This document shows, in pieces, positions 428-11,196 of a DNA stretch of 11,196 nt (position 1 is the first letter of the stretch; each line of letters opens with the position of its first letter). This DNA comes from JBFLYE01 sp040756715 [NCBI: bacterium] (lineage in GTDB: Bacteria > UBA9089 > UBA9088). The position numbers were made by a program, and so were the translations under genes. The notes beneath the pieces are model-generated. The model searched no databases. It saw only the letters and a list, made by a program, of their open reading frames with translations, and was not told where the DNA came from. The DNA is taken from assembly GCA_040756715.1 (NCBI GenBank), contig JBFLYE010000120.1, forward strand, positions 1 through 11,196, in the 5' to 3' direction.

Positions 428-904
428 CTAAACGCATTGCAATTTAGCCTTTGCAATGGCTTGCGAAACAGCAGATTTTGGGGAATTTGCTTTGATGAGT
501 GGAATCTCTGCAAGCTCATAGGAGAAATCCCAGGTATATAAGCCAATAATAGGCTTTTTAAATTGTAGGCCATAGGCTATCTCAGATAGTGTCCCATAGC
601 TTCCATCAATGGCAATAATTGCACAAGATGATAGGACAACAATTATATTTCTTGCATAGCCAATGCCTGTTACAATGGGAATATCAACATATGGATTAGA
701 AGAAGCCGCATCAATGCCTGGTAGAATTCCAATCGTTAATCCCTTTTCCTCTTTTGCCCCTTTACAGGCTGCCTCCATTATCCCAGAAAGCCCTCCACAG
801 ATAAGGATACAATTATTCCTTGCTATTTCTTTTCCTGTTTCATAGGCAAGGGAAAGGATTTCGCCTTTTGGATTTTCACCACCAATAACACCAATTCTAA
901 TCAT
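428..904 (-). CDS. TIGR00725 / LOG-like Rossmann-fold nucleotide-binding protein
   Basis: A 158-residue protein of the SLOG/LOG-like superfamily (TIGR00725 type), related to the lysine-decarboxylase-like and DprA Rossmann proteins. Visible features are the N-terminal strand and turn IGVIGG (residues 4-9), the glycine-rich loop GGLSGIMEAA (37-46), GYARN (82-86) and DGSYGTLSE (100-108). The last corresponds to the PGGxGTxxE nucleotide-binding motif of LOG cytokinin-activating enzymes, with GSYG in place of GGxG. The length is normal for TIGR00725. Family members bind nucleotides or nucleotide-derived ligands, but the substrate of this subfamily is not established, so no reaction is assigned. 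The start overlaps the stop of the FlgM-like gene (ATGA, 901-904), which points to translational coupling and co-transcription. The family call is confident; the function is not. Confidence 0.85.
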   Translation of the reverse strand: MIRIGVIGGENPKGEILSLAYETGKEIARNNCILICGGLSGIMEAACKGAKEEKGLTIGILPGIDAASSNPYVDIPIVTGIGYARNIIVVLSSCAIIAIDGSYGTLSEIAYGLQFKKPIIGLYTWDFSYELAEIPLIKANSPKSAVSQAIAKAKLQCV

Positions 905-1260
905 TCCGGGAAGAACATATTGGTTATGCTTTCTATGATTCTTTTGTTTATCCTTGGAGTATCTATTCCCCCTTTAAGCAATTTTACAGCCTCATCTATC
1001 TTTTCTTCCCTTATGTCAGGAATATCTTTTACTAAGGAAAGAACCTTAGAAAGGTAGTATGCTGTTTTTGCTCCCTCAGAGATTGTTGCCTCGTCATAGC
1101 CAGAGGATATAGATGTTTCTCCTAATGTTGGCATAGTATATGTTTTTTTGGGAGAAGATAAAACTTGAGAGAAAGAGAGAGAAACCTCCTCCTTTTTCTT
1201 TATAGGGCTTCCTAAAACCTCTTTTGGTTTAAGCTCTCCATTTATTTTTGAAAAATCCAT
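901..1260 (-). CDS. flgM: FlgM-like anti-sigma-28 factor (probable)
   Basis: A 119-residue protein with a low-complexity, probably disordered first half. The C-terminal half fits FlgM: ISEGAK (60-65) followed by VKDIPDIREEKI (77-88) and a second helix ending in ESITNMFF. FlgM holds the flagellar sigma factor FliA inactive until the hook is complete, using a C-terminal region led by just such a 'VKxxPDIREEKV' segment. The protein is a little longer than typical FlgM (about 90-100 residues) because of its N-terminal part. The start is supported by a good Shine-Dalgarno (AGGAG at 1271-1267, 6 bases before ATG). A near-consensus sigma-28 promoter lies just upstream, which is how flgM is often controlled, so two independent clues agree. 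No other flagellar gene is in the window. It could still be a FlgM-fold protein acting on another partner. Confidence 0.68.
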   Translation of the reverse strand: MDFSKINGELKPKEVLGSPIKKKEEVSLSFSQVLSSPKKTYTMPTLGETSISSGYDEATISEGAKTAYYLSKVLSLVKDIPDIREEKIDEAVKLLKGGIDTPRINKRIIESITNMFFPE

Positions 1261-1278: not shown

Positions 1279-1306
1279 TTATCGGCATTTTTTCAAAATA
1301 ACTTTA
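1279..1306 (-). promoter_or_regulatory. Sigma-28 (FliA/SigD)-type promoter for the FlgM-like gene
   Basis: On the minus strand, TAAAGTTA (1306-1299) is followed after 12 bases by GCCGATAA (1286-1279). The FliA consensus is TAAAGTTT-N11-GCCGATAA, so 15 of 16 box positions agree and the spacer is one base longer than usual. Transcription would start near 1272, leaving a very short leader that still includes the AGGAG ribosome site at 1271-1267. Spacer and leader are slightly atypical; the match to both boxes is the main support. Confidence 0.6.
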
Positions 1307-1355: not shown

Positions 1356-1395
1356 TTAAGGAAACAGCAAAGAAAAGGCCTCTTTGATGTTTGAT
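1356..1395. repeat. Duplicate of the radA 3' end (distal copy of a 40-bp direct repeat)
   Basis: Positions 1356-1395 match 1920-1959 at 39 of 40 bases (the difference is C at 1380 against T at 1944). The second copy is the final coding part of radA, beginning exactly at its TAA stop. Translated leftward, this copy reads NIKEAFSLLFP followed by stop. Weaker similarity continues across a 5-base insertion, with GTTGGTATATCA here against ATCGGTGTATCA in radA. The two copies flank the DUF4258/DUF2283 pair. The repeat is seen directly; the idea that it marks an insertion or recombination junction is inference. Confidence 0.9.
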
Positions 1396-1412
1396 CTGAT
1401 ATACCAACAAAC

Positions 1413-1643
1413 CTAGTGAACTAGAGATTGGGAAATACTTTCTTCTATTCTTCTTTTAAGCATTGGAGCCAGTAGTCTTGAAACTCCCAATACTTCAACA
1501 CCCATAATCTCACCTCTACCTCCATATTCTACTTTTACTCCTTCTTCTAGCTCTTTAGAATCTATGGCTACTCCCTTTTTGAAGGATATATATAAAACAT
1601 CTAGCTCTTCATCATACCATAGCTTCATCTTATTTTTATCCAT
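1413..1643 (-). CDS. DUF2283 family protein, probable antitoxin partner
   Basis: A 76-residue protein whose core has the signature of DUF2283: a tryptophan-tyrosine start, then DEELDVLYISF, a short acidic segment, and a final strand with IMGVEVLGVSRLL. DUF2283 proteins are small, single-domain and often next to DUF4258 genes in arrangements read as toxin-antitoxin pairs; DUF2283 is usually taken as the antitoxin. Its ATG lies 19 bases inside the end of the DUF4258 gene and is preceded by a strong GGAGG (1655-1651) seven bases upstream, so the pair is one coupled unit. It ends shortly before the distal radA-end repeat. Family membership is clear; the antitoxin role is inferred from context only. 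Confidence 0.85.
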   Translation of the reverse strand: MDKNKMKLWYDEELDVLYISFKKGVAIDSKELEEGVKVEYGGRGEIMGVEVLGVSRLLAPMLKRRIEESISQSLVH

Positions 1644-1906
1644 CTTTTTGCCTCCTTTTTATTTATCTCTTTTTCTATATTCTTACAAGGATATATGGTC
1701 ACCACTTTTATTTGTTCACCCTCTTTCACAAAAGGGATTACTAAATAGGTCTCTGTTCTTGCCATTTCTACCTTTCCTATTGCTACCATACTTTTAGTGA
1801 TAATATCATAAAAAAGAAAATCGGGTTTTTCAATCACCTTCTCAATTAAACTTTTACCAATTTCCCTCTCTTCAATTTTTAAAAGAGCATGTTTAGAAAA
1901 AAGCAT
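1625..1906 (-). CDS. DUF4258 family protein, probable toxin component
   Basis: A 93-residue protein matching DUF4258: FSKHALLKIEEREI near the N-terminus (the usual H...R.I pattern), IEKVIEKPD, a beta-rich middle (MARTETYLVIPFV), and VVTIYP followed by RW near the C-terminus. DUF4258 proteins resemble the RelE/BrnT-type fold and commonly pair with DUF2283, so a toxin role, perhaps as an RNase, is plausible; no catalytic residue can be proven here. It starts 13 bases after the radA stop, using AAAGGTG six bases before ATG as ribosome site, so transcription probably continues from radA. It is the first gene of the cassette lying between the two copies of the radA 3' end. Confidence 0.82.
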   Translation of the reverse strand: MLFSKHALLKIEEREIGKSLIEKVIEKPDFLFYDIITKSMVAIGKVEMARTETYLVIPFVKEGEQIKVVTIYPCKNIEKEINKKEAKRWIKIR

Positions 1907-1919
1907 TTTTTACACCTTT

Positions 1920-1959
1920 TTAAGGAAACAGCAAAGAAAAGGCTTCTTTGATGTTTGAT
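1920..1959. repeat. Proximal copy of the 40-bp direct repeat (genuine radA 3' end)
   Basis: This is the last part of the radA reading frame (NIKEAFSLLFP and TAA on the minus strand), matched at 1356-1395 with one mismatch. The segment between the copies, 1396-1919 (524 bases), holds little beyond the DUF4258/DUF2283 pair. Because the copy attached to radA keeps an intact frame, a cassette entering here would leave radA undamaged. Confidence 0.9.
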
Positions 1960-3239
1960 ACACCGATTAGCTCTATTTGCTTCTCCTTTATCTTATCTAA
2001 ATTTGATTTGGGAAGAAAGCAGGAAGAAAATCCAAGCTTTGATGCCTCCTCTATCCTCTTTTCTATATTTGATATGCCCCTTATCTCACCAGAAAGGCCA
2101 ACCTCTCCCACCAGGGCTATCTTCTCATCTATTGGCTTTTCCTTAAATGATGAGACAATGGCAGAGCATATTCCAAGGTCTATTGCAGGCTCAGAGCTTC
2201 CTATTCCACCTGCAATATTGACAAATAGGTCATAGGTTGAAAGGTTATAGCCCATCCTCTTTTCCAAAACAGCCAAAAGGAGCAAAATCCTGTTATAATT
2301 TACACCCAATGTATCCCTCCTTGCCATTCCATAGATGGTTGGCGTAGCAAGGGCTTGAATTTCAATAAGAATGGGTCTGCTTCCCTCAACTGTGCAGGAA
2401 ACAACAGAGCCAGATGCACCTTTTGGTCTTTCTGATAAGAATGCTAAGGATGGGTTTTTTACCTCAGAAAGCCCCTTTTCTTCCATTAAGAATACGCCTA
2501 TCTCATTGGTTGAGCCAAACCTATTTTTGTAAGCCCTTAAAATTCTAAAAATATGATTTTTATCTCCCTCAAAATAAAGCACTGTGTCAACCATATGCTC
2601 AAGGAGCTTAGGCCCTGCAATTGAACCCTCCTTTGTTACATGACCAACAATGAATATGGGGATATTCCTCTGTTTGGCAATGCCAGAGAGAAAGCTTGTG
2701 CAGACCTTTATCTGAGAGACCGTTCCAGGGGCAGATGGTAGGCTTGGGTGGTATATTGCCTGGATTGAATCAATGACAATTACCTTAACCTCTATTTTCT
2801 CAAGCTGGTCTAAAATATGGGTAATCTTGTTGTAGGATGAGATGTATAAATTTTCTGATGAGATAGAAAGCCTATCTGCCCTTATCTTTATCTGTTGGTA
2901 AGATTCCTCTCCACTTACATAAAGCACCTTATTTTCCTTTGCGAGCTCTCCTGATACCTGAAGAAGAAGGGTTGATTTTCCAATCCCTGGGTCTCCTCCA
3001 ATAAGGACTAAAGAGCCCAAAACTATTCCTCCTCCCAGCACAGAATCAAACTCAGAAATTCCAGATTTTATCTTCTCTTCTTCCTTGATCTCTATTTCTG
3101 GAAGCTTAAATAAAAGGGGGGATTCCTCCTTTCTATATTCTTCTACTACCTCTTCTGTAAAGGTATTCCATTCTCCACAGCCAGGGCACCTTCCAAACCA
3201 TTTGGAGGAGGAATAATCACAGGACAAGCATCTATACAT
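1920..3239 (-). CDS. radA: DNA repair protein RadA (Sms), branch-migration ATPase
   Basis: A full-length 439-residue RadA, a RecA-related motor that processes recombination intermediates. Domains in order: a four-cysteine zinc finger (C4, C7, C18, C21, in the pattern CxxC...CPGC); the RecA-like ATPase with Walker A GDPGIGKS (82-89) and a Walker B strand VIVIDS (153-158); the RadA-specific KNRFG motif (238-242); and a C-terminal Lon-protease-like domain. The C-terminal domain ends in KEAFSLLFP. The start is fixed by an in-frame TAA directly before the ATG; there is no Shine-Dalgarno, but a sigma-70-type promoter ends 7 bases upstream, so the mRNA is probably leaderless. The DUF4258/DUF2283 genes follow directly, and the last 40 bases of the gene are duplicated beyond them. 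Confidence 0.97.
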   Translation of the reverse strand: MYRCLSCDYSSSKWFGRCPGCGEWNTFTEEVVEEYRKEESPLLFKLPEIEIKEEEKIKSGISEFDSVLGGGIVLGSLVLIGGDPGIGKSTLLLQVSGELAKENKVLYVSGEESYQQIKIRADRLSISSENLYISSYNKITHILDQLEKIEVKVIVIDSIQAIYHPSLPSAPGTVSQIKVCTSFLSGIAKQRNIPIFIVGHVTKEGSIAGPKLLEHMVDTVLYFEGDKNHIFRILRAYKNRFGSTNEIGVFLMEEKGLSEVKNPSLAFLSERPKGASGSVVSCTVEGSRPILIEIQALATPTIYGMARRDTLGVNYNRILLLLAVLEKRMGYNLSTYDLFVNIAGGIGSSEPAIDLGICSAIVSSFKEKPIDEKIALVGEVGLSGEIRGISNIEKRIEEASKLGFSSCFLPKSNLDKIKEKQIELIGVSNIKEAFSLLFP

Positions 3240-3304: not shown

Positions 3305-5659
3305 TCAGCTAACCACAACATTCACAAGCCTTCCTGGGACAAGGATTATATCCTTAATCTCTCCCTTAATCTTATCCTTTATCTCATCCATTGCCCTTTT
3401 TTTTGTTTCATTAGGGCTTAAATTAGAGGGAATGGTAATCTTTCCCTTAAGCTTCCCATTTATCTGGATTATGATAGTGCTCTCTTTTTCCTCGATTAAG
3501 GCTTCATCGTAGGATGGCCAGGGTTCATCCTCTATCCTTCCTTCAAAATGCTCCTTCCAAAGGTAAGATGAGATATGCGGGGCAAATGGAAAGAGAAGGA
3601 CCAGAAATGTTTTGAATATATCCTTCGTGAGCAAGCCATCTTCTATTTCATTGAGAAATTCCATAAGGTGGGCTATGGCTGTATTAAAATGGAATCTCTC
3701 TATATCCTCCGATACCTCCTTTATTGTCTTATGTATCAAGGCATAAAATCTTTCTTCTGATCCTCTGATCCTCTGATCCTCTGACCCTCTGACTTTTATT
3801 TTATATATTCTATTTAAAAACCTAAAGCATCCCGCTATGCCCTTATCATTCCATTCAAGCTCCTTTTCTGGTGGTGCGGCAAATAGAATAAAGAGCCTTG
3901 TGCTATCTGCTCCATATTCCTCTATAATTTTATCTGGGTCAACCACATTGCCTTTGGATTTTGACATCTTCGCACCATCCTTTATAACCATTCCTTGTGC
4001 CAATAAGTTTTTAAATGGCTCATCTATTGAGATAAGCCCCAAATCCTTCATTACCTTGGTAAAGAACCTGGCATACAAAAGATGCAAAATGGCATGTTCA
4101 ATCCCTCCAATGTATTGGTCTACGCTCATCCAATAGTCTGCCTCTTTCTTTAGGACAGGAAGGTTATCGCAATTGGGTGTAAGATACCTCAAGAAATACC
4201 AAGAGGAATCAACAAATGTATCCATTGTATCTGTCTCCCGCTTGGCATCCTTTCCACAATTTGGGCATTTGCAATTTAAAAATTCATCAATTTCCCGAAG
4301 GTTTTGCCCCGGCTTTGTATCCAAAGGAAGCTCTACCGGAAGGTCTTCTTCAGGAACAGGAACTATGCCGCATTGAAAGCAATATACAATGGGAATGGGT
4401 GTTCCCCAATACCTTTGCCGAGAGACAAGCCAATCCCTGAGCCTGTAGTTTATGGTTTTTCTTCCCATTCCATTTTTTTCCATCCAATCTGTTATTGCAT
4501 CAATTGCCTCTTTGCTTGACATTCCATTAAATTGACCAGAATTAACCAAAATCCCTTCCCCTTCATACGCCCCTTCCCTTTCCTGACCTCCGACCCCTGA
4601 CCCCTGAGCCCTGACTACCATTTTTATTGGAAGCCCATATTTCTTTGCAAAATCAAAATCCCTTGAGTCATGAGCAGGAACAGCCATAATCGCACCTGTT
4701 CCGTATTCCATCAAGACATAATTTGCAATCCAGATGGGTATTTTTTCCTGATTTACGGGATTTATGGCATACAGGTCTGTAAATATTCCCTCTTTTTCCA
4801 TTTTGTCAGGCGATACCCTAGTTTTTGCCCTTTCTACAAATTCCCTTACCTCCTTTTTCTCTATCTCCTCTACCAATGGGTATTGCGGCGCTAATGTCAA
4901 ATAGGTTGCTCCAAAGATTGTATCTGGCCTGGTTGTAAATACAGGGATTATTTTTCCTCCCTTTTCCTCTTTAAAGAATATCTCGCACCCAATGCTCTTT
5001 CCAATCCAATTCTTCTGCATAGTAATGACATTTTCAGGCCATTTCCCAAGCAATTTTAGATCATCTAAAAGCCTTTCTGCATATTCGGTAATCTTAAAAA
5101 ACCATTGCTCTAAGCTTTTTGTGGTAATAAAAGAATTGCATCTCCAGCAATCGCCGTTTATAACCTGTTCATTTGCCAAAACAGTCTTGCATTTAGGACA
5201 CCAATTTACATCCTCCTTTTTTCTATAAACCAACCCCTTTTGATATAGCTTTAAAAATAGCCATTGATTCCATCTATAATATTCCCTATCGCAGGTTGCA
5301 ATCTCCCTTTCCCAATCATAGGAAAGCCCAAGCCTTTTAAGCTGGCTTTTCATATAGCTGATATTATCCTTTGTCCATTTAGCAGGGTGTATGTCCTTTT
5401 CAATTGCAGCATTTTCAGCCGGTAAGCCAAATGCATCCCATCCCATGGGATAGAGGACATCAAAGCCCTTTAATCTTTTATATCTTGCAATTGTATCGCC
5501 TATGCAATAATTCCTGACATGGCCAATGTGGATTTTTCCCGAGGGATAGGGAAACATCTCCAGCAAGTAGAATTTTTCTTTTCCCTTTTTTCTAAAAAAA
5601 CCCTCTTTTTCCCAGAATTCTTGGATTTTTTTTTCTATTTCAAAAAATGGGTATGTCAT
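3305..5659 (-). CDS. leuS: Leucyl-tRNA synthetase
   Basis: Charges tRNA-Leu with leucine and edits mischarged tRNA. The 784-residue protein is shorter than E. coli LeuRS (860) but complete. It has the class I HIGH motif (44-47), a zinc site (CPKC 154-157, CWRC 171-174), the CP1 editing domain with TTRPDT (242-247) and GTGAIMAVPAHDSRD (320-334), a second cysteine cluster (427-430 and 463-468), the KMSKS motif (564-568), an anticodon-binding helical domain, and the C-terminal segment ending in PGRLVNVVVS. Two surface loops are encoded by short tandem repeats: residues about 349-362 (7-bp units) and 623-637 (8-bp units). The start overlaps the stop of the four-helix gene (ATGA) and has no Shine-Dalgarno, so translation is probably coupled. 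It is the last gene of the rplM operon. Confidence 0.97.
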   Translation of the reverse strand: MTYPFFEIEKKIQEFWEKEGFFRKKGKEKFYLLEMFPYPSGKIHIGHVRNYCIGDTIARYKRLKGFDVLYPMGWDAFGLPAENAAIEKDIHPAKWTKDNISYMKSQLKRLGLSYDWEREIATCDREYYRWNQWLFLKLYQKGLVYRKKEDVNWCPKCKTVLANEQVINGDCWRCNSFITTKSLEQWFFKITEYAERLLDDLKLLGKWPENVITMQKNWIGKSIGCEIFFKEEKGGKIIPVFTTRPDTIFGATYLTLAPQYPLVEEIEKKEVREFVERAKTRVSPDKMEKEGIFTDLYAINPVNQEKIPIWIANYVLMEYGTGAIMAVPAHDSRDFDFAKKYGLPIKMVVRAQGSGVGGQEREGAYEGEGILVNSGQFNGMSSKEAIDAITDWMEKNGMGRKTINYRLRDWLVSRQRYWGTPIPIVYCFQCGIVPVPEEDLPVELPLDTKPGQNLREIDEFLNCKCPNCGKDAKRETDTMDTFVDSSWYFLRYLTPNCDNLPVLKKEADYWMSVDQYIGGIEHAILHLLYARFFTKVMKDLGLISIDEPFKNLLAQGMVIKDGAKMSKSKGNVVDPDKIIEEYGADSTRLFILFAAPPEKELEWNDKGIAGCFRFLNRIYKIKVRGSEDQRIRGSEERFYALIHKTIKEVSEDIERFHFNTAIAHLMEFLNEIEDGLLTKDIFKTFLVLLFPFAPHISSYLWKEHFEGRIEDEPWPSYDEALIEEKESTIIIQINGKLKGKITIPSNLSPNETKKRAMDEIKDKIKGEIKDIILVPGRLVNVVVS
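3757..3793. repeat. 8-bp tandem repeat tract inside leuS
   Basis: Three copies of CTGATCCT, one of CTGACCCT and a partial CTGAC stand head to tail on the plus strand. They encode a hydrophilic loop of period eight residues (VRGSEDQR, then IRGSEER) at LeuRS residues 623-637. Because the unit is not a multiple of three, loss or gain of one unit would shift the leuS frame; only steps of three units (24 bases) are neutral. Confidence 0.9.
4580..4615. repeat. 7-bp tandem repeat tract inside leuS editing domain
   Basis: On the minus strand the units TCAGGGC, TCAGGGG, TCAGGGG, TCGGAGG and TCAGGAA follow one another. They encode a glycine/glutamine-rich loop (VVRAQGSGVGGQE) at LeuRS residues about 348-360, just before the 'NSGQFNG' segment, where family members vary in length. 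It resembles the 8-bp tracts in base composition (TCAGGG/TCAGAGG cores) but has period seven. Confidence 0.8.
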
Positions 5660-6093
5660 AAAGAGTCTGGAGTCTGGGAGTCTGGAGGTTGGGAATTTCT
5701 TAGATAATTTGAAAAAGCTTGGATAAGTCGCGATACCTCTTCTGCACTGACATATATATTTTGAAACTCCTCTTCTGAAATATATTTTTCATCAAATGTT
5801 ACATAGAGATGCGATTGGAGTTCTGCGACTGAAGCATGAGCTATACCAAGAAAATTTATGAATTCTTTATCGGTGCGCCTTGCAAATCCTTCAGCAATAT
5901 TTGCCATTATTGAGATTGCAGAATTTCTTAATTGGTTTTTTAAACTAAAATCTTTAGTGAAATGTGAATTTTTTGTAATTTTATAAATTTTATTTGTTAA
6001 TTCTCTTGCCTTCTGCCAAGCCCGAATATCCTCAAATTTCTCAATCTTCCCCTTGACCCTCTGACCCTCTGACCCTCTGACTCTCTGACCCAT
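5656..6093 (-). CDS. Four-helix bundle (S23/IVP-like) protein inside the ribosomal operon
   Basis: A 145-residue protein of the four-helix bundle family (the 23S rRNA intervening-sequence protein family). Conserved blocks are FEDIRAWQKARELTNKIY (20-37), LRNSAISIMANIAEGFAR (55-72) and EFINFLGIAHASVAELQSHL (77-96). The biochemical role of the family is unknown. It lies between rpsI and leuS, starting on the last base of the rpsI stop (TAATG) and ending in an ATGA overlap with leuS. Residues 1-16 (GQRVRGSEGQRVKG) and the C-terminal tail (SQPPDSQTPDS) are both encoded by 8-bp tandem repeats, so only about residues 17-133 look like the ancestral protein. I kept the ATG at 6093 because no internal ATG precedes the conserved core. 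An insertion into an essential operon is inferred from context. Confidence 0.88.
   Translation of the reverse strand: MGQRVRGSEGQRVKGKIEKFEDIRAWQKARELTNKIYKITKNSHFTKDFSLKNQLRNSAISIMANIAEGFARRTDKEFINFLGIAHASVAELQSHLYVTFDEKYISEEEFQNIYVSAEEVSRLIQAFSNYLRNSQPPDSQTPDSL
5663..5686. repeat. 8-bp tandem repeat at the 3' end of the four-helix gene
   Basis: Three head-to-tail units (GAGTCTGG, AGTCTGGG, AGTCTGGA on the plus strand), followed by a decayed fourth, encode the proline/aspartate-rich tail PPDSQTPDS. The tract ends just before the leuS start codon. Its unit differs from the tract at the 5' end of the same gene but has the same period. Confidence 0.8.
6053..6092. repeat. 8-bp tandem repeat at the 5' end of the four-helix gene
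   Basis: Five units close to CTGACCCT (TTGACCCT, CTGACCCT twice, CTGACTCT, CTGACCCA) run from just inside the gene to its start codon at 6093-6091. They encode GQRVRGSEGQRVKG. The unit is nearly the same as in the leuS tract at 3757-3793, although the two sites are over 2 kb apart. The tract touches the rpsI stop codon, so unit changes alter the start of the four-helix frame. Confidence 0.9.
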
Positions 6094-6488
6094 TACCTCT
6101 TTGAGAATTGGAACCTTCTTCTTCTTCCATAGAGGCCATATTTTTTTCTCTCATGGATTCTTGTATCCCTTTTAAGAAGACCTGCTTTATTAAGGATAGG
6201 TTTTAATTCCTCATTTTTTTTTGCCAATGCCCTGGCAATCCCCTCCCTTATTGCTCCAGCCTGGCCAGATATGCCACCACCTCTAATATTTACATAACAA
6301 TCAAATTTTCCAAATGTTTGTGTGGCATAGAATGGTGCGAAGACAAAGGGTTCAAGTGCTTTTGCCCTTCCACCAAAATATGTATTAAAATCCCTTTTGT
6401 TTATTTCTATCTTCCCATCACCAGGAATAAGCCTTACCCTTGCTCCTGCCTCTTTTCTCTTTCCAGTTGCCTGAACTTGTTCTCTCAT
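6093..6488 (-). CDS. rpsI: 30S ribosomal protein S9 (uS9)
   Basis: A 131-residue S9 of normal length. It shows the family core GGGISGQAGAIREGIARAL and the basic C-terminus ending FSKR, whose last arginine reaches the P-site tRNA in ribosomes. The N-terminal part (ATGKRKEAGARVRLIPGDG) is also typical. It overlaps rplM by four bases (ATGA at 6485-6488), the conserved L13-S9 pairing of bacteria, and its stop overlaps the next start by one base. The gene looks intact and free of repeats. Confidence 0.97.
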   Translation of the reverse strand: MREQVQATGKRKEAGARVRLIPGDGKIEINKRDFNTYFGGRAKALEPFVFAPFYATQTFGKFDCYVNIRGGGISGQAGAIREGIARALAKKNEELKPILNKAGLLKRDTRIHERKKYGLYGRRRRFQFSKR

Positions 6489-8917: not shown

Positions 8918-9098
8918 ATGAGGAATTTTTTTGTTAGCTAACAGATATTTTATAGTTAATTCCATAACGCTTTACAAAATGTATGTGTTTAGATAATCTT
9001 AAGGAAAACTTTATAAAATTATGAATTTTGAATGTTGAATTTTGAATTAAAAGGGAAAAAATTTTATAAAACTTAACCTTTTTCAATTCAAAATTCAA
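8918..9098. other. Non-coding region between secY and the inverted-repeat arm
   Basis: No gene is evident. The stretch holds a 12-bp perfect palindrome (TGTTAGCTAACA, 8932-8943) soon after the secY stop and most of the AT-rich hairpin listed separately. No GC-rich stem with a T run is seen, so a classical terminator for secY is not identified. Confidence 0.5.
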
Positions 9099-9111
9099 AA
9101 TTTAGAATTCA
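9022..9111. repeat. AT-rich imperfect hairpin built from GAATTTTGAAT units
   Basis: Two 14-base units (TGAATTTTGAATGT at 9022-9035, TGAATTTTGAATTA at 9036-9049) are followed by their inverted counterpart. TGAATTTTGAATT (9036-9048) pairs perfectly with AATTCAAAATTCA (9085-9097), and the outer units pair at 11 of 14 positions (9022-9035 with 9098-9111). Inside, AAAAGG (9049-9054) can pair with CCTTTT (9077-9082). The right part runs into the 95-bp inverted-repeat arm. It could be a fold-back repeat element or a weak bidirectional transcription barrier. Confidence 0.6.
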
Positions 9112-9193
9112 AAATTTCTTAAAAGGTGGATGAATTTTTAACAGATAAACACAACCCTATCTATTTTTGCACTAAGTAATGGAAGATACTATA
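9099..9193 (+). repeat. Left arm of a perfect 95-bp inverted repeat
   Basis: Positions 9099-9193 are the exact reverse complement of 11102-11196, 95 of 95 bases by reading. Symmetry breaks at 9194 (G), where the partner would require A. The arm ends just before the likely thrC start codons (ATG at 9197 and 9206) and contains the more upstream ATG at 9179. The loop between arms is 1908 bases and holds thrC and the MNT and HEPN genes. The outer limit is unknown, since the right arm reaches the window edge. Confidence 0.95.
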
Positions 9194-10435
9194 GTTATGG
9201 AATGGATGAAAGGGCTTAAGTGTAAGGAATGCGGACGGGAATATCCAAAAGCCGCATTGTATATATGCGAATTCTGCTTTGGACCACTTGAGGTAATCTA
9301 TGATTATCCTGAAATAAAAAAGGTTATCTCCCGTTTCTCTATTGAGAAAAGCCGAGTATATAACCTTTGGCGGTATAAGGAGCTTCTTCCTTTAGATAAA
9401 GAGCCGCAATGTGGTTTAAACTCAGGATTTACACCACTTATTAAGGGAAATAACCTTGCAAAGGCACTTGGTGTGGATTGCATTTACATAAAGGATGATT
9501 CTGTTAATCATCCAACCTTCTCATTTAAGGATAGGGTTGTTGCTGTTGCCCTATCAAGGGCAAAGGAGCTTGGATTTGAAACCGTTGCCTGTGTATCAAC
9601 GGGAAATCTTGCTAATTCTGTTGCTGCTCAAGCAAGGTCTGCAAATCTCTCTGCATATATCTTTATTCCCGCAGATCTTGAAATGGGCAAGGCGATAGCA
9701 TCTTTAATCTATAACCCAATTCTTGTAGGAATAAAGGGAAATTATGACCAGGTGAATAGGCTTTGTCATGAAATTTCAGCAAAATACAATTGGGCATTTG
9801 TAAATATCAATATAAGGCCATACTATGCAGAGGGTTCAAAGACAATTGCCTATGAAATAGCGGAGCAGCTTGGGTGGAAAGCACCAAAGCATATTGTTAT
9901 CCCAGCTGCTTCTGGCTCTTTAATTACCAAGATTTACAAAGGATTAAAGGAGTTTGAAATGCTTGGTTTAATTTCTAATGTTAGGACAAGGCTACATATT
10001 GCCCAGGCAGAAGGATGCTCCCCAATTGTTTCTGCTATAAAGGAGGATTCGCCATTTATCAAGCCTGTTATTCCAAAAACAATCGCAAAATCCTTAGCAG
10101 TTGGAAACCCAGCTGATGGATACTATGCCTATAATGTTGTAAAGACATCGGGTGGATATGGAGAGGTTGCTACAGATGATGAAATTGTTGAGGCAATGAA
10201 GCTATTGGCAGAAACAGAAGGGATATTTACAGAAACAGCGGGTGGTGTAACCCTGGCGGTTTGCAAGAAATTGATTGAACAGGGAAAAATTCCAAGTGAT
10301 GAGGAGATTGTTATATGTATTACAGGAAACGGCTTAAAAACCCAAGAGGTTATAGCAGATAAAATTAAAAAGCCAATAATTATTGAGCCAAGCTTAAGGT
10401 CATTTGAGAAGGAGGTAGTAAAAAATGAACCTTGA
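9179..10435 (+). CDS. thrC: Threonine synthase with N-terminal zinc ribbon
   Basis: Converts O-phosphohomoserine to threonine using pyridoxal phosphate. Up to 418 residues: an N-terminal rubredoxin-like CKEC...CEFC pair (C15, C18, C30, C33), then the fold-type II PLP domain with NHPTFSFKDR (PLP lysine K117), the STGNLANS substrate loop, and a C-terminal CITGNGLK segment. This is the short archaeal/bacterial class. The start is uncertain. The ATG at 9179 lies inside the inverted-repeat arm and has no ribosome site. ATGs at 9197 and 9206 give MEWMKGLKC or MKGLKC, closer to where the zinc ribbon begins, and lie just outside the repeat, so one of these may be right. The 3' end overlaps the MNT gene by 11 bases. 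Confidence 0.94.
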   Translation: MEDTIVMEWMKGLKCKECGREYPKAALYICEFCFGPLEVIYDYPEIKKVISRFSIEKSRVYNLWRYKELLPLDKEPQCGLNSGFTPLIKGNNLAKALGVDCIYIKDDSVNHPTFSFKDRVVAVALSRAKELGFETVACVSTGNLANSVAAQARSANLSAYIFIPADLEMGKAIASLIYNPILVGIKGNYDQVNRLCHEISAKYNWAFVNINIRPYYAEGSKTIAYEIAEQLGWKAPKHIVIPAASGSLITKIYKGLKEFEMLGLISNVRTRLHIAQAEGCSPIVSAIKEDSPFIKPVIPKTIAKSLAVGNPADGYYAYNVVKTSGGYGEVATDDEIVEAMKLLAETEGIFTETAGGVTLAVCKKLIEQGKIPSDEEIVICITGNGLKTQEVIADKIKKPIIIEPSLRSFEKEVVKNEP

Positions 10436-10733
10436 GTTTTATTCGGAAAAAAGATTAAAAGGGGAAATTTTAGAAATTATTGGTAAATATTTAAACCTTG
10501 ATGATTATAAGATTTTTTTCTTTGGTTCAAGGGTTTCGGGAGATAATTTCCTGCGTTCGGATATTGATATTGGTATTGAAGGAGCAAAAGAACTTCCCAT
10601 TGAGGTAAAATTTAAAATTGAGGAAGATATAGAGAGGCTGCCAACATTATATAGGTTTGAATTTGTTGATTTCAAAAGGGTTTCAAATGATTTTAAAAAG
10701 GAGGCATTAAAATTTGTTGAATATATTAGATGA
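10425..10733 (+). CDS. MNT-type minimal nucleotidyltransferase (MntA-like antitoxin candidate)
   Basis: A 102-residue minimal nucleotidyltransferase of the polymerase-beta superfamily. It has the complete GSX10DXD signature: G34-S35, then D46 and D48 (SDIDIGI), with a possible third carboxylate in FEFVDF (78-83). In studied HEPN-MNT pairs, MntA adds AMP units to the partner HepT and silences its RNase activity. The ATG is preceded by a strong GGAGG (10411-10415) and lies 11 bases inside the end of thrC; its stop overlaps the next start (ATGA). The motif and pairing are seen; the antitoxin function is taken from the family. Confidence 0.9.
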   Translation: MNLEFYSEKRLKGEILEIIGKYLNLDDYKIFFFGSRVSGDNFLRSDIDIGIEGAKELPIEVKFKIEEDIERLPTLYRFEFVDFKRVSNDFKKEALKFVEYIR

Positions 10734-11134
10734 ATTTTGTAATTTATAAAGATTTTGAAAAAGCGATTAAAAGATTAAAAGAGGTTTTAAAATTAGAAAA
10801 AACAGAGATTACAAGGGATTCCGCAATTAAAAGATTTGAGCTTTGCTTTGATCTGAGCTGGAAATCAATTAAGGTTTTTGCCAAAGATCAAAGGGTAGAA
10901 TGCTATTCACCTAGGGAGTGTTTTAAGGTTGCTTTTCAATTAAGCTTAATAGATTATGATGAAGCCTGGTTAAGAATGATTGACGATAGAAATTTAACCG
11001 CCCATCTTTACAAAGAGGAATATGCTGATGATGTTTATTCAAGGCTACCTAAATATTTAAAAATGTTTAAAAAATTAAGAGAAAATTTAAAAGGGGGTAA
11101 TTATAGTATCTTCCATTACTTAGTGCAAAAATAG
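10730..11134 (+). CDS. HEPN-domain partner of the nucleotidyltransferase (HepT/HI0074-like)
   Basis: A 134-residue helical protein of the HI0074 'nucleotidyltransferase substrate-binding' family. Conserved blocks are RDSAIKRFELCFDLSWKSIK (29-48), SPRECFKVAF (60-69), and LRMIDDRNLTAHLY (81-94). The last contains R87-x4-H92-x-Y94, the RX4HXY HEPN motif in which Arg and His form the RNase site and Tyr is the AMPylation target in the studied HepT. It starts by ATGA overlap with the MNT gene. The final 10-11 residues (from about residue 124, SIFHYLVQK included) are encoded by the right arm of the 95-bp inverted repeat and look foreign to the family. A toxin role is inferred; some HI0074-like pairs have no shown toxicity. 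Confidence 0.9.
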   Translation: MNFVIYKDFEKAIKRLKEVLKLEKTEITRDSAIKRFELCFDLSWKSIKVFAKDQRVECYSPRECFKVAFQLSLIDYDEAWLRMIDDRNLTAHLYKEEYADDVYSRLPKYLKMFKKLRENLKGGNYSIFHYLVQK

Positions 11135-11196
11135 ATAGGGTTGTGTTTATCTGTTAAAAATTCATCCACCTTTTAAGAAATTTTGAATTCTAAATT
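11102..11196 (-). repeat. Right arm of the perfect 95-bp inverted repeat, cut by the window end
   Basis: Exact reverse complement of 9099-9193. It overlaps the last codons and stop of the HEPN gene (to 11134) and then continues as non-coding DNA to the last base. Because identity has not ended at 11196, the true repeat may be longer; the next bases expected from the left arm would be more GAATTTTGAATT-type sequence. Confidence 0.95.

What the first reader, a model, noticed from the sequence alone, without database searches (positions are those of the whole stretch)
1356..1959. A two-gene DUF4258/DUF2283 cassette sits between two copies of the radA 3' end
The last 40 bases of radA, starting exactly at the stop codon, recur at 1356-1395 with one mismatch. 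Between the copies is a 524-base segment containing just the DUF4258-DUF2283 pair, whose ribosome site begins directly after the radA stop. This layout resembles integration at a gene's 3' end that rebuilds the gene (attL/attR-like), or homologous capture of a cassette that carried a piece of another radA. No recombinase is present, so the pair would be a very small mobile unit moved in trans. The distal copy shows a 5-base insertion and further decay upstream, which suits an old remnant.
Basis: partly seen in the sequence, partly recalled or inferred. Interest (0 to 1): 0.8.

Follow-up and report, generated by a model that had tools for sequence, protein, structure and literature searches.

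The report
Toxin-antitoxin pair carrying a gene tail
A small two-gene toxin-antitoxin-like unit sits directly after a DNA-repair gene and is followed by a second copy of that gene's last 40 bases; the same layout, ending at the stop codon, occurs at other genes beside related pairs in unrelated microbes, which suggests that such pairs can spread together with a copy of a host gene's end.

Summary
Observation confirmed: radA's last 40 nt recur once, at 1356-1395 (39/40), with only a DUF4258-DUF2283 pair between the copies. The DUF4258 protein models as a RelE/BrnT-like fold.

The architecture recurs. Among about 108 related cassettes with a usable same-strand upstream gene, seven others have that gene's tail repeated after the cassette, the repeat ending at the stop codon (-2 to +4 nt): moaA, mreB, cysN-like, radC, hsdS, a sugar transferase, ribBA. 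None of 683 other gene ends does. The copies differ mostly synonymously (36 synonymous, 19 nonsynonymous sense codons), and three of eight pairs use different stop codons. So in the diverged cases they are most likely two once-functional gene tails, not an in-place duplication.

Best reading: the cassette arrived joined to a donor copy of radA's end and recombined there, leaving the old tail downstream. No shared att core or integrase was seen. Limits: no true empty site was found; the window's own copies (one synonymous difference) cannot alone tell import from in-place duplication; 26 extra loci gave no further case.

The parts
1920..3239 (-). radA (Sms/RadA), host gene; stop codon 1920-1922
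   Evidence: TIGR00416 577 bits, cut-off 403; intact 439-aa frame
1920..1959 (-). proximal gene tail (functional radA 3' end); repeat extends to 1917
1913..1919 (-). ribosome-site-like AAAGGTG between radA stop and DUF4258 start
   Evidence: read from sequence
1625..1906 (-). DUF4258 protein, 93 aa, candidate BECR-fold toxin
   Evidence: PF14076 25.9 bits; AlphaFold pLDDT 91.7; VIA-align top rows BrnT, RelE, YoeB, best Z 7.0
1413..1643 (-). DUF2283 protein, 76 aa, candidate antitoxin; overlaps the DUF4258 gene
   Evidence: PF10049 45.5 bits; model pLDDT 82.6
1396..1412 (-). 17-nt spacer between DUF2283 stop and the distal tail
1356..1395 (-). distal gene tail: orphan copy of the last 40 nt of radA, 39/40; extended repeat 1353-1395
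901..1260 (-). flgM-like gene downstream; homology with the congener's flgM block runs from 455 to 1316 and stops there
   Evidence: FlgM Pfam hit only weak, 14.6 bits, below the cut-off

Best explanation
A two-gene cassette (DUF4258 candidate BECR-fold toxin, DUF2283 candidate antitoxin) entered the chromosome joined to a donor copy of radA's 3' end. Recombination in the radA sequence put donor tail and cassette in front of the old tail, leaving the recipient's own last 40 nt downstream as an orphan. radA stays intact and the cassette starts 13 nt after its stop. Shown: the repeat, the gene content, the toxin-like fold model, the stop-bounded tail repeat at seven other genes with none at 683 control gene ends, and mostly synonymous divergence between copies. 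Inferred: the order of events, that the proximal copy is the incoming one, and the joining step (homology at the tail with illegitimate or microhomology joining at the other end, or a single crossover by a tail-plus-cassette circle). Toxin and antitoxin activity are inferred from fold and layout.
For: Repeat and cassette. Only two copies in the genome. Seven other cassettes with tails ending -2 to +4 nt from the stop at unrelated genes; 7/108 against 0/683, p=7e-7. Mismatches by codon position 14/6/48; 36 synonymous against 19 nonsynonymous sense codons, p=1e-5 against the in-place-duplication expectation. Stop codons differ between copies in 3 of 8. The window's one mismatch is GAA/GAG, synonymous. 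BECR-like model.
Against: No empty allele with matching flanks for any of the eight loci. In the window itself there is one difference only, so import from a near-identical donor and in-place duplication cannot be told apart there. About 94% of cassettes with an upstream gene show no tail, and 26 additional loci gave none. radA's 3' end is not more divergent from G001 than the rest of the gene. The stop-edge criterion was set after the first cases were seen. Native against incoming tail was not tested with a tree. In L288 nonsynonymous changes equal synonymous ones (9 and 9).
Confidence: 0.55

Rival explanations
1. Fossil of a larger integrative element (phage, ICE or satellite) that used an integrase at radA's 3' end, as e14 does at icd; everything was lost except its addictive pair and the two att-like tails.
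For: e14 at icd leaves a 165-bp duplicated tail with 12 exchanges and two conservative amino-acid changes (PMC11148124, passage), the same kind of footprint. A toxin-antitoxin pair would resist deletion (inference).
Against: No integrase or other element gene between the copies in the window. Eight cassettes sit at eight different genes with no shared core. The distal tail lies -1 to 38 nt after the DUF2283 stop in five of eight, which would need deletions that hug the pair each time.
Confidence: 0.18
2. In-place target duplication on insertion, as proposed for restriction-modification systems (insertion with long target duplication), or by staggered-break fill-in.
For: Long and variable duplications are reported for RM systems (PMC3874152, PMC1643837, PMC3031569, passages). 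G003:C22 (24/24) and the window (39/40) have nearly identical copies.
Against: Predicts neither the edge at the stop codon nor synonymous divergence and changed stop codons in the orphan copy.
Confidence: 0.17
3. Product of genome rearrangement or misassembly: a junction that happens to join a duplicated radA end to the flgM region.
For: radA and flgM are not neighbours in G001, G002 or G003. Local direct repeats are common in these genomes: 7 of 72 gene-matched and 30 of 859 sliding controls score 18 or more.
Against: Stop-bounded tail repeats are absent from 683 control gene ends but present at related cassettes in independent assemblies.
Confidence: 0.08

Closest known systems
Prophage e14 at E. 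coli icd / icdC (phage 21 likewise, recalled)
   Same: Insertion near a gene's 3' end; gene tail on both sides; the differences leave the protein nearly unchanged (PMC11148124, passage).
   Different: e14 is a whole prophage with an integrase gene and one fixed target; here there are two small genes, no integrase, and a different target gene at each locus.
Insertion with long target duplication of restriction-modification systems (Nobusato 2000, Furuta 2010; not readable here, seen only through citing passages)
   Same: An addictive gene pair between long, variable direct repeats (PMC3874152, PMC1643837, passages).
   Different: There the repeat is described as a target duplication; here the repeats end at a stop codon and the copies have diverged as coding sequence.
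Displacement of T6SS effector-immunity modules by homology-facilitated illegitimate recombination (model)
   Same: Conserved gene part as homology anchor, new module joined to it, old 3' end shifted downstream (PMC5361080, passages).
   Different: There the module swaps the functional 3' part of the effector gene itself; here an unrelated pair rides behind a core gene whose protein is unchanged.
DUF4258 toxins of type II toxin-antitoxin modules
   Same: Sequence family and predicted fold; small overlapping two-gene operon. DUF4258 is listed among BECR toxin families with unknown activity (PMC11980606, passages).
   Different: The partner here is DUF2283, which that text does not mention (0 occurrences); it lists DUF4258 order as A/T, while here the toxin-like gene comes first.

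Membership tests
Type II toxin-antitoxin module with BECR toxin | Toxin of the BECR (RelE/BrnT/ParE) fold | tested here: met
   43 of the 50 VIA-align rows listed are labelled toxin or toxin-antitoxin chains, best Z 7.0 (BrnT); Z under 8 may also reflect a common arrangement; Foldseek best E only 0.09; PF14076 just above cut-off
Type II toxin-antitoxin module with BECR toxin | Two small adjacent or overlapping genes kept together | tested here: met
   overlapping frames; DUF2283-like frame downstream in 80 of 80 related toxin loci
Type II toxin-antitoxin module with BECR toxin | Toxin arrests growth and partner neutralises it | not testable with these tools
   needs expression tests
Integrase-type element at a gene 3' end (e14/icd type) | Gene tail on both sides, host gene restored | tested here: met
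Integrase-type element at a gene 3' end (e14/icd type) | Integrase gene within the element | tested here: not met
   only the two small genes lie between the copies
Integrase-type element at a gene 3' end (e14/icd type) | A family-wide att core | tested here: not met
   eight target genes with different tails
Insertion with long target duplication (RM type) | Long variable direct repeats around an addictive pair | tested here: met
   24 to 113 nt
Insertion with long target duplication (RM type) | Repeats arise by copying the target in place | tested here: inconclusive
   argued against by synonymous divergence in the diverged cases; not decidable in the window (1 difference)
Transposon or IS-borne unit | Transposase within the unit | tested here: not met
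   no other gene-like frame assigned between the copies
Transposon or IS-borne unit | Terminal inverted repeats | not tested
   inner ends only compared by eye, no convincing pair seen
Integron gene cassette | attC site | not tested
   considered only; no attC model was run

The most novel reading that the evidence does not exclude
DUF4258/PBECR2-DUF2283 toxin-antitoxin pairs spread as tail-plus-cassette units: each carries a copy of its target gene's 3' end down to the stop codon, which serves as homology anchor and repairs the gene it enters. Core genes can then be colonised without damage and without any recombinase, and each new host gene becomes the vehicle.
Probability: 0.3. Interest if true: 0.8.

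Novelty: new variant of a known kind. Interest (0 to 1): 0.62.

Why it matters
How small toxin-antitoxin pairs enter chromosomes without any visible mobile element is an open question. A recurrent footprint, a gene tail ending at the stop codon on both sides of the pair with synonymous divergence between the copies, gives a searchable signature of that entry, links it to gene-tail replacement by phages and to displacement of effector-immunity modules, and makes it testable in strain collections and in transformable laboratory strains.

Tried and rejected
Dispersed repeat: rejected, two copies only. radA-tail repeats elsewhere: 29 other radA loci checked downstream against 100 shuffles each; three (L024, L027, L029) exceed the 95% level and none exceeds the largest shuffle (two had under 220 nt downstream). 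Empty site through radA-flgM or ribBA-cupin synteny: gene order is not kept, so no test. Carriers: the window's DUF4258 protein found nothing in viral contigs or plasmids; PBECR2 nothing in viral contigs, plasmids or phages. Higher divergence of radA's 3' end against G001: not seen.

'Any flanking direct repeat': 12 of 58 other Desantisbacteria cassettes and 18 of 74 GTDB cassettes score 18 or more, against 30 of 859 sliding windows, but 7 of 72 gene-matched controls also do, so the excess over matched genes is modest. Several of these repeats look like dispersed elements; the case rests on the stop-bounded class alone. Dropped before counting: L262 (repeat -22 to +20; codon positions 4/1/1), L383 (-38 to +56), G012:C94 (stop-ended 45-nt repeat, 37/45, 1745 nt apart with another gene between); 27 cassettes without an upstream gene and 4 with too short a flank; L058 (negative slice in my script); N-masked contigs (8 of 40 control stretches dropped). 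The first codon count used hand-set lengths, among them a shortened mreB tail; it was redone with the full aligned codons, which is the one cited. Of the further places, 26 were fetched and tested; already held and very partial ones were left out.

Literature: no held paper has both DUF names, DUF2283 with toxin-antitoxin or DUF2283 at all; 8 hold DUF4258 (passages of one read); 5 hold toxin-antitoxin, direct repeats, target duplication and insertion together, and none of the five titles is about this pattern; none has Desantisbacteria with toxin-antitoxin. Papers seen as passages only: PMC11980606, PMC2654758, PMC3874152, PMC1643837, PMC11148124, PMC3031569, PMC5361080. Nobusato 2000 was not looked up; Furuta 2010 is not held.

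Full report
What is there. On the minus strand radA (1920-3239) ends at 1920-1922. Thirteen nt later begins a 93-aa DUF4258 gene (1625-1906), overlapped by a 76-aa DUF2283 gene (1413-1643). Seventeen nt after its stop the last 40 nt of radA occur again (1356-1395), 39/40 identical. The flgM-like gene, with a sigma28-like promoter (my reading), follows. The tail occurs only these two times in the held genome. The single mismatch is GAA/GAG, both Glu.

Organism. The one congener held, G001, has radA at 91% nt identity, but the match covers radA alone, and the flgM block (455-1316) lies on another contig. G001 has no match to the window's DUF4258 protein at E 0.01, and no cassette follows its radA in the 216-219 nt held. 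The distal copy shares all four bases at which G000's radA tail differs from G001's, so the duplication looks younger than that split, or the donor was a close relative.

The pair. DUF4258 scores just above its Pfam cut-off. An AlphaFold model from ten sequences has pLDDT 91.7. Foldseek gives only weak E-values, best 0.09; in VIA-align 43 of the 50 rows listed are labelled toxin or toxin-antitoxin chains (BrnT, RelE, YoeB, ParE, YafQ, HigB), best Z 7.0, a level the tool warns can also reflect a common arrangement. DUF2283 is modelled as a small beta unit with a C-terminal helix (pLDDT 82.6; no fold search run). Among toxin relatives from other genomes two of six score on both PBECR2 and DUF4258, three on PBECR2 alone and one on neither. 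All 80 PBECR2 loci fetched from GTDB genomes (the best 80 of 206) have a DUF2283-like frame directly downstream. I take the pair as a type II toxin-antitoxin module; activity is untested.

Generality. I pooled 61 DUF2283 places of the phylum (window included) with 78 PBECR2-DUF2283 loci (the 80 less two already in the phylum set): 139 cassettes, of which 108 had a usable same-strand upstream gene. Tail repeats ending at the stop codon: L316 moaA (90 nt), L314 mreB (91), L255 cysN-like (57), L271 radC (40), L274 hsdS (34), G003:C22 ribBA (24) and the window (43). L288, a sugar transferase (113), surfaced in the control scan because its cassette starts about 0.7 kb after the stop. Genes are named from Pfam or NCBIfam hits; cysN is my reading of an EF-Tu-like GTPase beside a cysD-like gene. 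The right edge lies -2 to +4 nt from the stop in all eight. The same kind of scan over 685 other gene ends gave 23 repeats, of which only the window itself (as L001) and L288 are stop-bounded, so 0 of 683. Without the window this is 7 of about 108 against 0 of 683, p=7e-7. Twenty-six further PBECR2 loci gave none; with the 22 of them that have an upstream gene, 7 of 130, p=2e-6. Upstream genes were accepted from 110 codons (50 at a contig edge) for cassettes and from 130 for controls.

What the copies say. Over the eight pairs mismatches fall at codon positions 1/2/3 as 14/6/48. Of 55 changed sense codons, 36 are synonymous, against about 22% expected for neutral change and 36% for in-place duplication with one constrained and one freely decaying copy (p=7e-12 and 1e-5). 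L288 is the weakest here (9 and 9), though most of its replacements are conservative. In L314, L271 and L274 the two copies end in different stop codons, and similarity falls to near background within 10 nt after the stop, G003 being longest with 7 of 10. The simplest account is that both copies were functional gene ends in separate lineages (orthologues; for L288 and L274 perhaps paralogues). A target duplication in place predicts neither the stop-codon edge nor this divergence.

Mechanism. The cassette arrives attached to a donor gene's 3' end and recombines with the recipient gene there. One end joins by homology; the other joins 20-111 nt before the recipient's stop, leaving that tail as an orphan. 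[quoted passage not shown] RM systems are said to insert with long variable target duplications (PMC3874152, PMC1643837, PMC3031569, passages). Integration of a tail-plus-cassette circle by a single crossover would give the same end product and is not excluded. The distal tail begins -1 to 38 nt after the DUF2283 stop in five of eight, so the unit is often no more than tail plus two genes.

Limits. No empty allele with matching flanks was seen for any of the eight, and which tail is native was not tested. The window's own pair is too similar to tell import from in-place duplication; its reading leans on the other seven. The footprint marks about 6% of cassettes, because it decays or because other routes are commoner. 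One other layout is visible in G016, where an 80-nt dispersed repeat flanks a PBECR2-DUF2283, a PIN-domain and a HicA-HicB pair. The stop-edge criterion was set after the first cases were seen, though controls were scored by the same rule.

Verdict. Observation confirmed; the capture reading is the best supported (0.55), the integrase-fossil and in-place-duplication readings remain open; the architecture recurs across phyla. I rate it a new variant of a known kind, gene-tail replacement on insertion, carried by a minimal toxin-antitoxin-like pair.

Noticed in passing
L330, L331, L334 (G016 C19, C183, C167) and L332 (G003 C175): One 80-nt dispersed repeat (with a promoter-like end) lies on both sides of three different toxin-antitoxin-type pairs in genome G016 (PIN plus small ORF, HicA-HicB, PBECR2-DUF2283), and one copy lies near a MazF-like gene in G003.
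   Followed up: partly
window 1279-1306: Sigma28-like promoter upstream of the flgM-like gene (minus strand TAAAGTTA 1299-1306, GCCGATAA 1279-1286; consensus recalled); similar stretches recur at many places in G000-G004.
   Followed up: partly
window 9065-9193 and 11098-11196: Dispersed repeat before thrC: 124/129 identical to the start of G000:C19, and an inverted 99-nt copy (99%) forms the end of this contig.
   Followed up: partly
window 3748-3803 and 6044-6099: Runs of an 8-nt unit (TCTGATCC / TCTGACCC) inside leuS and at the start of the 23S rRNA intervening-sequence protein gene.
   Followed up: no
window 10425-11134: Nucleotidyltransferase plus substrate-binding (HepT-like) pair whose first gene overlaps the end of the threonine-synthase-like gene (thrC name is my reading).
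   Followed up: no
L190 (G000:C19) about 273-331 and 914-972: A second DUF4258-DUF2283-type pair in the same genome lies between 59-nt direct repeats, about 83% identical, that are not an obvious gene end.
   Followed up: partly
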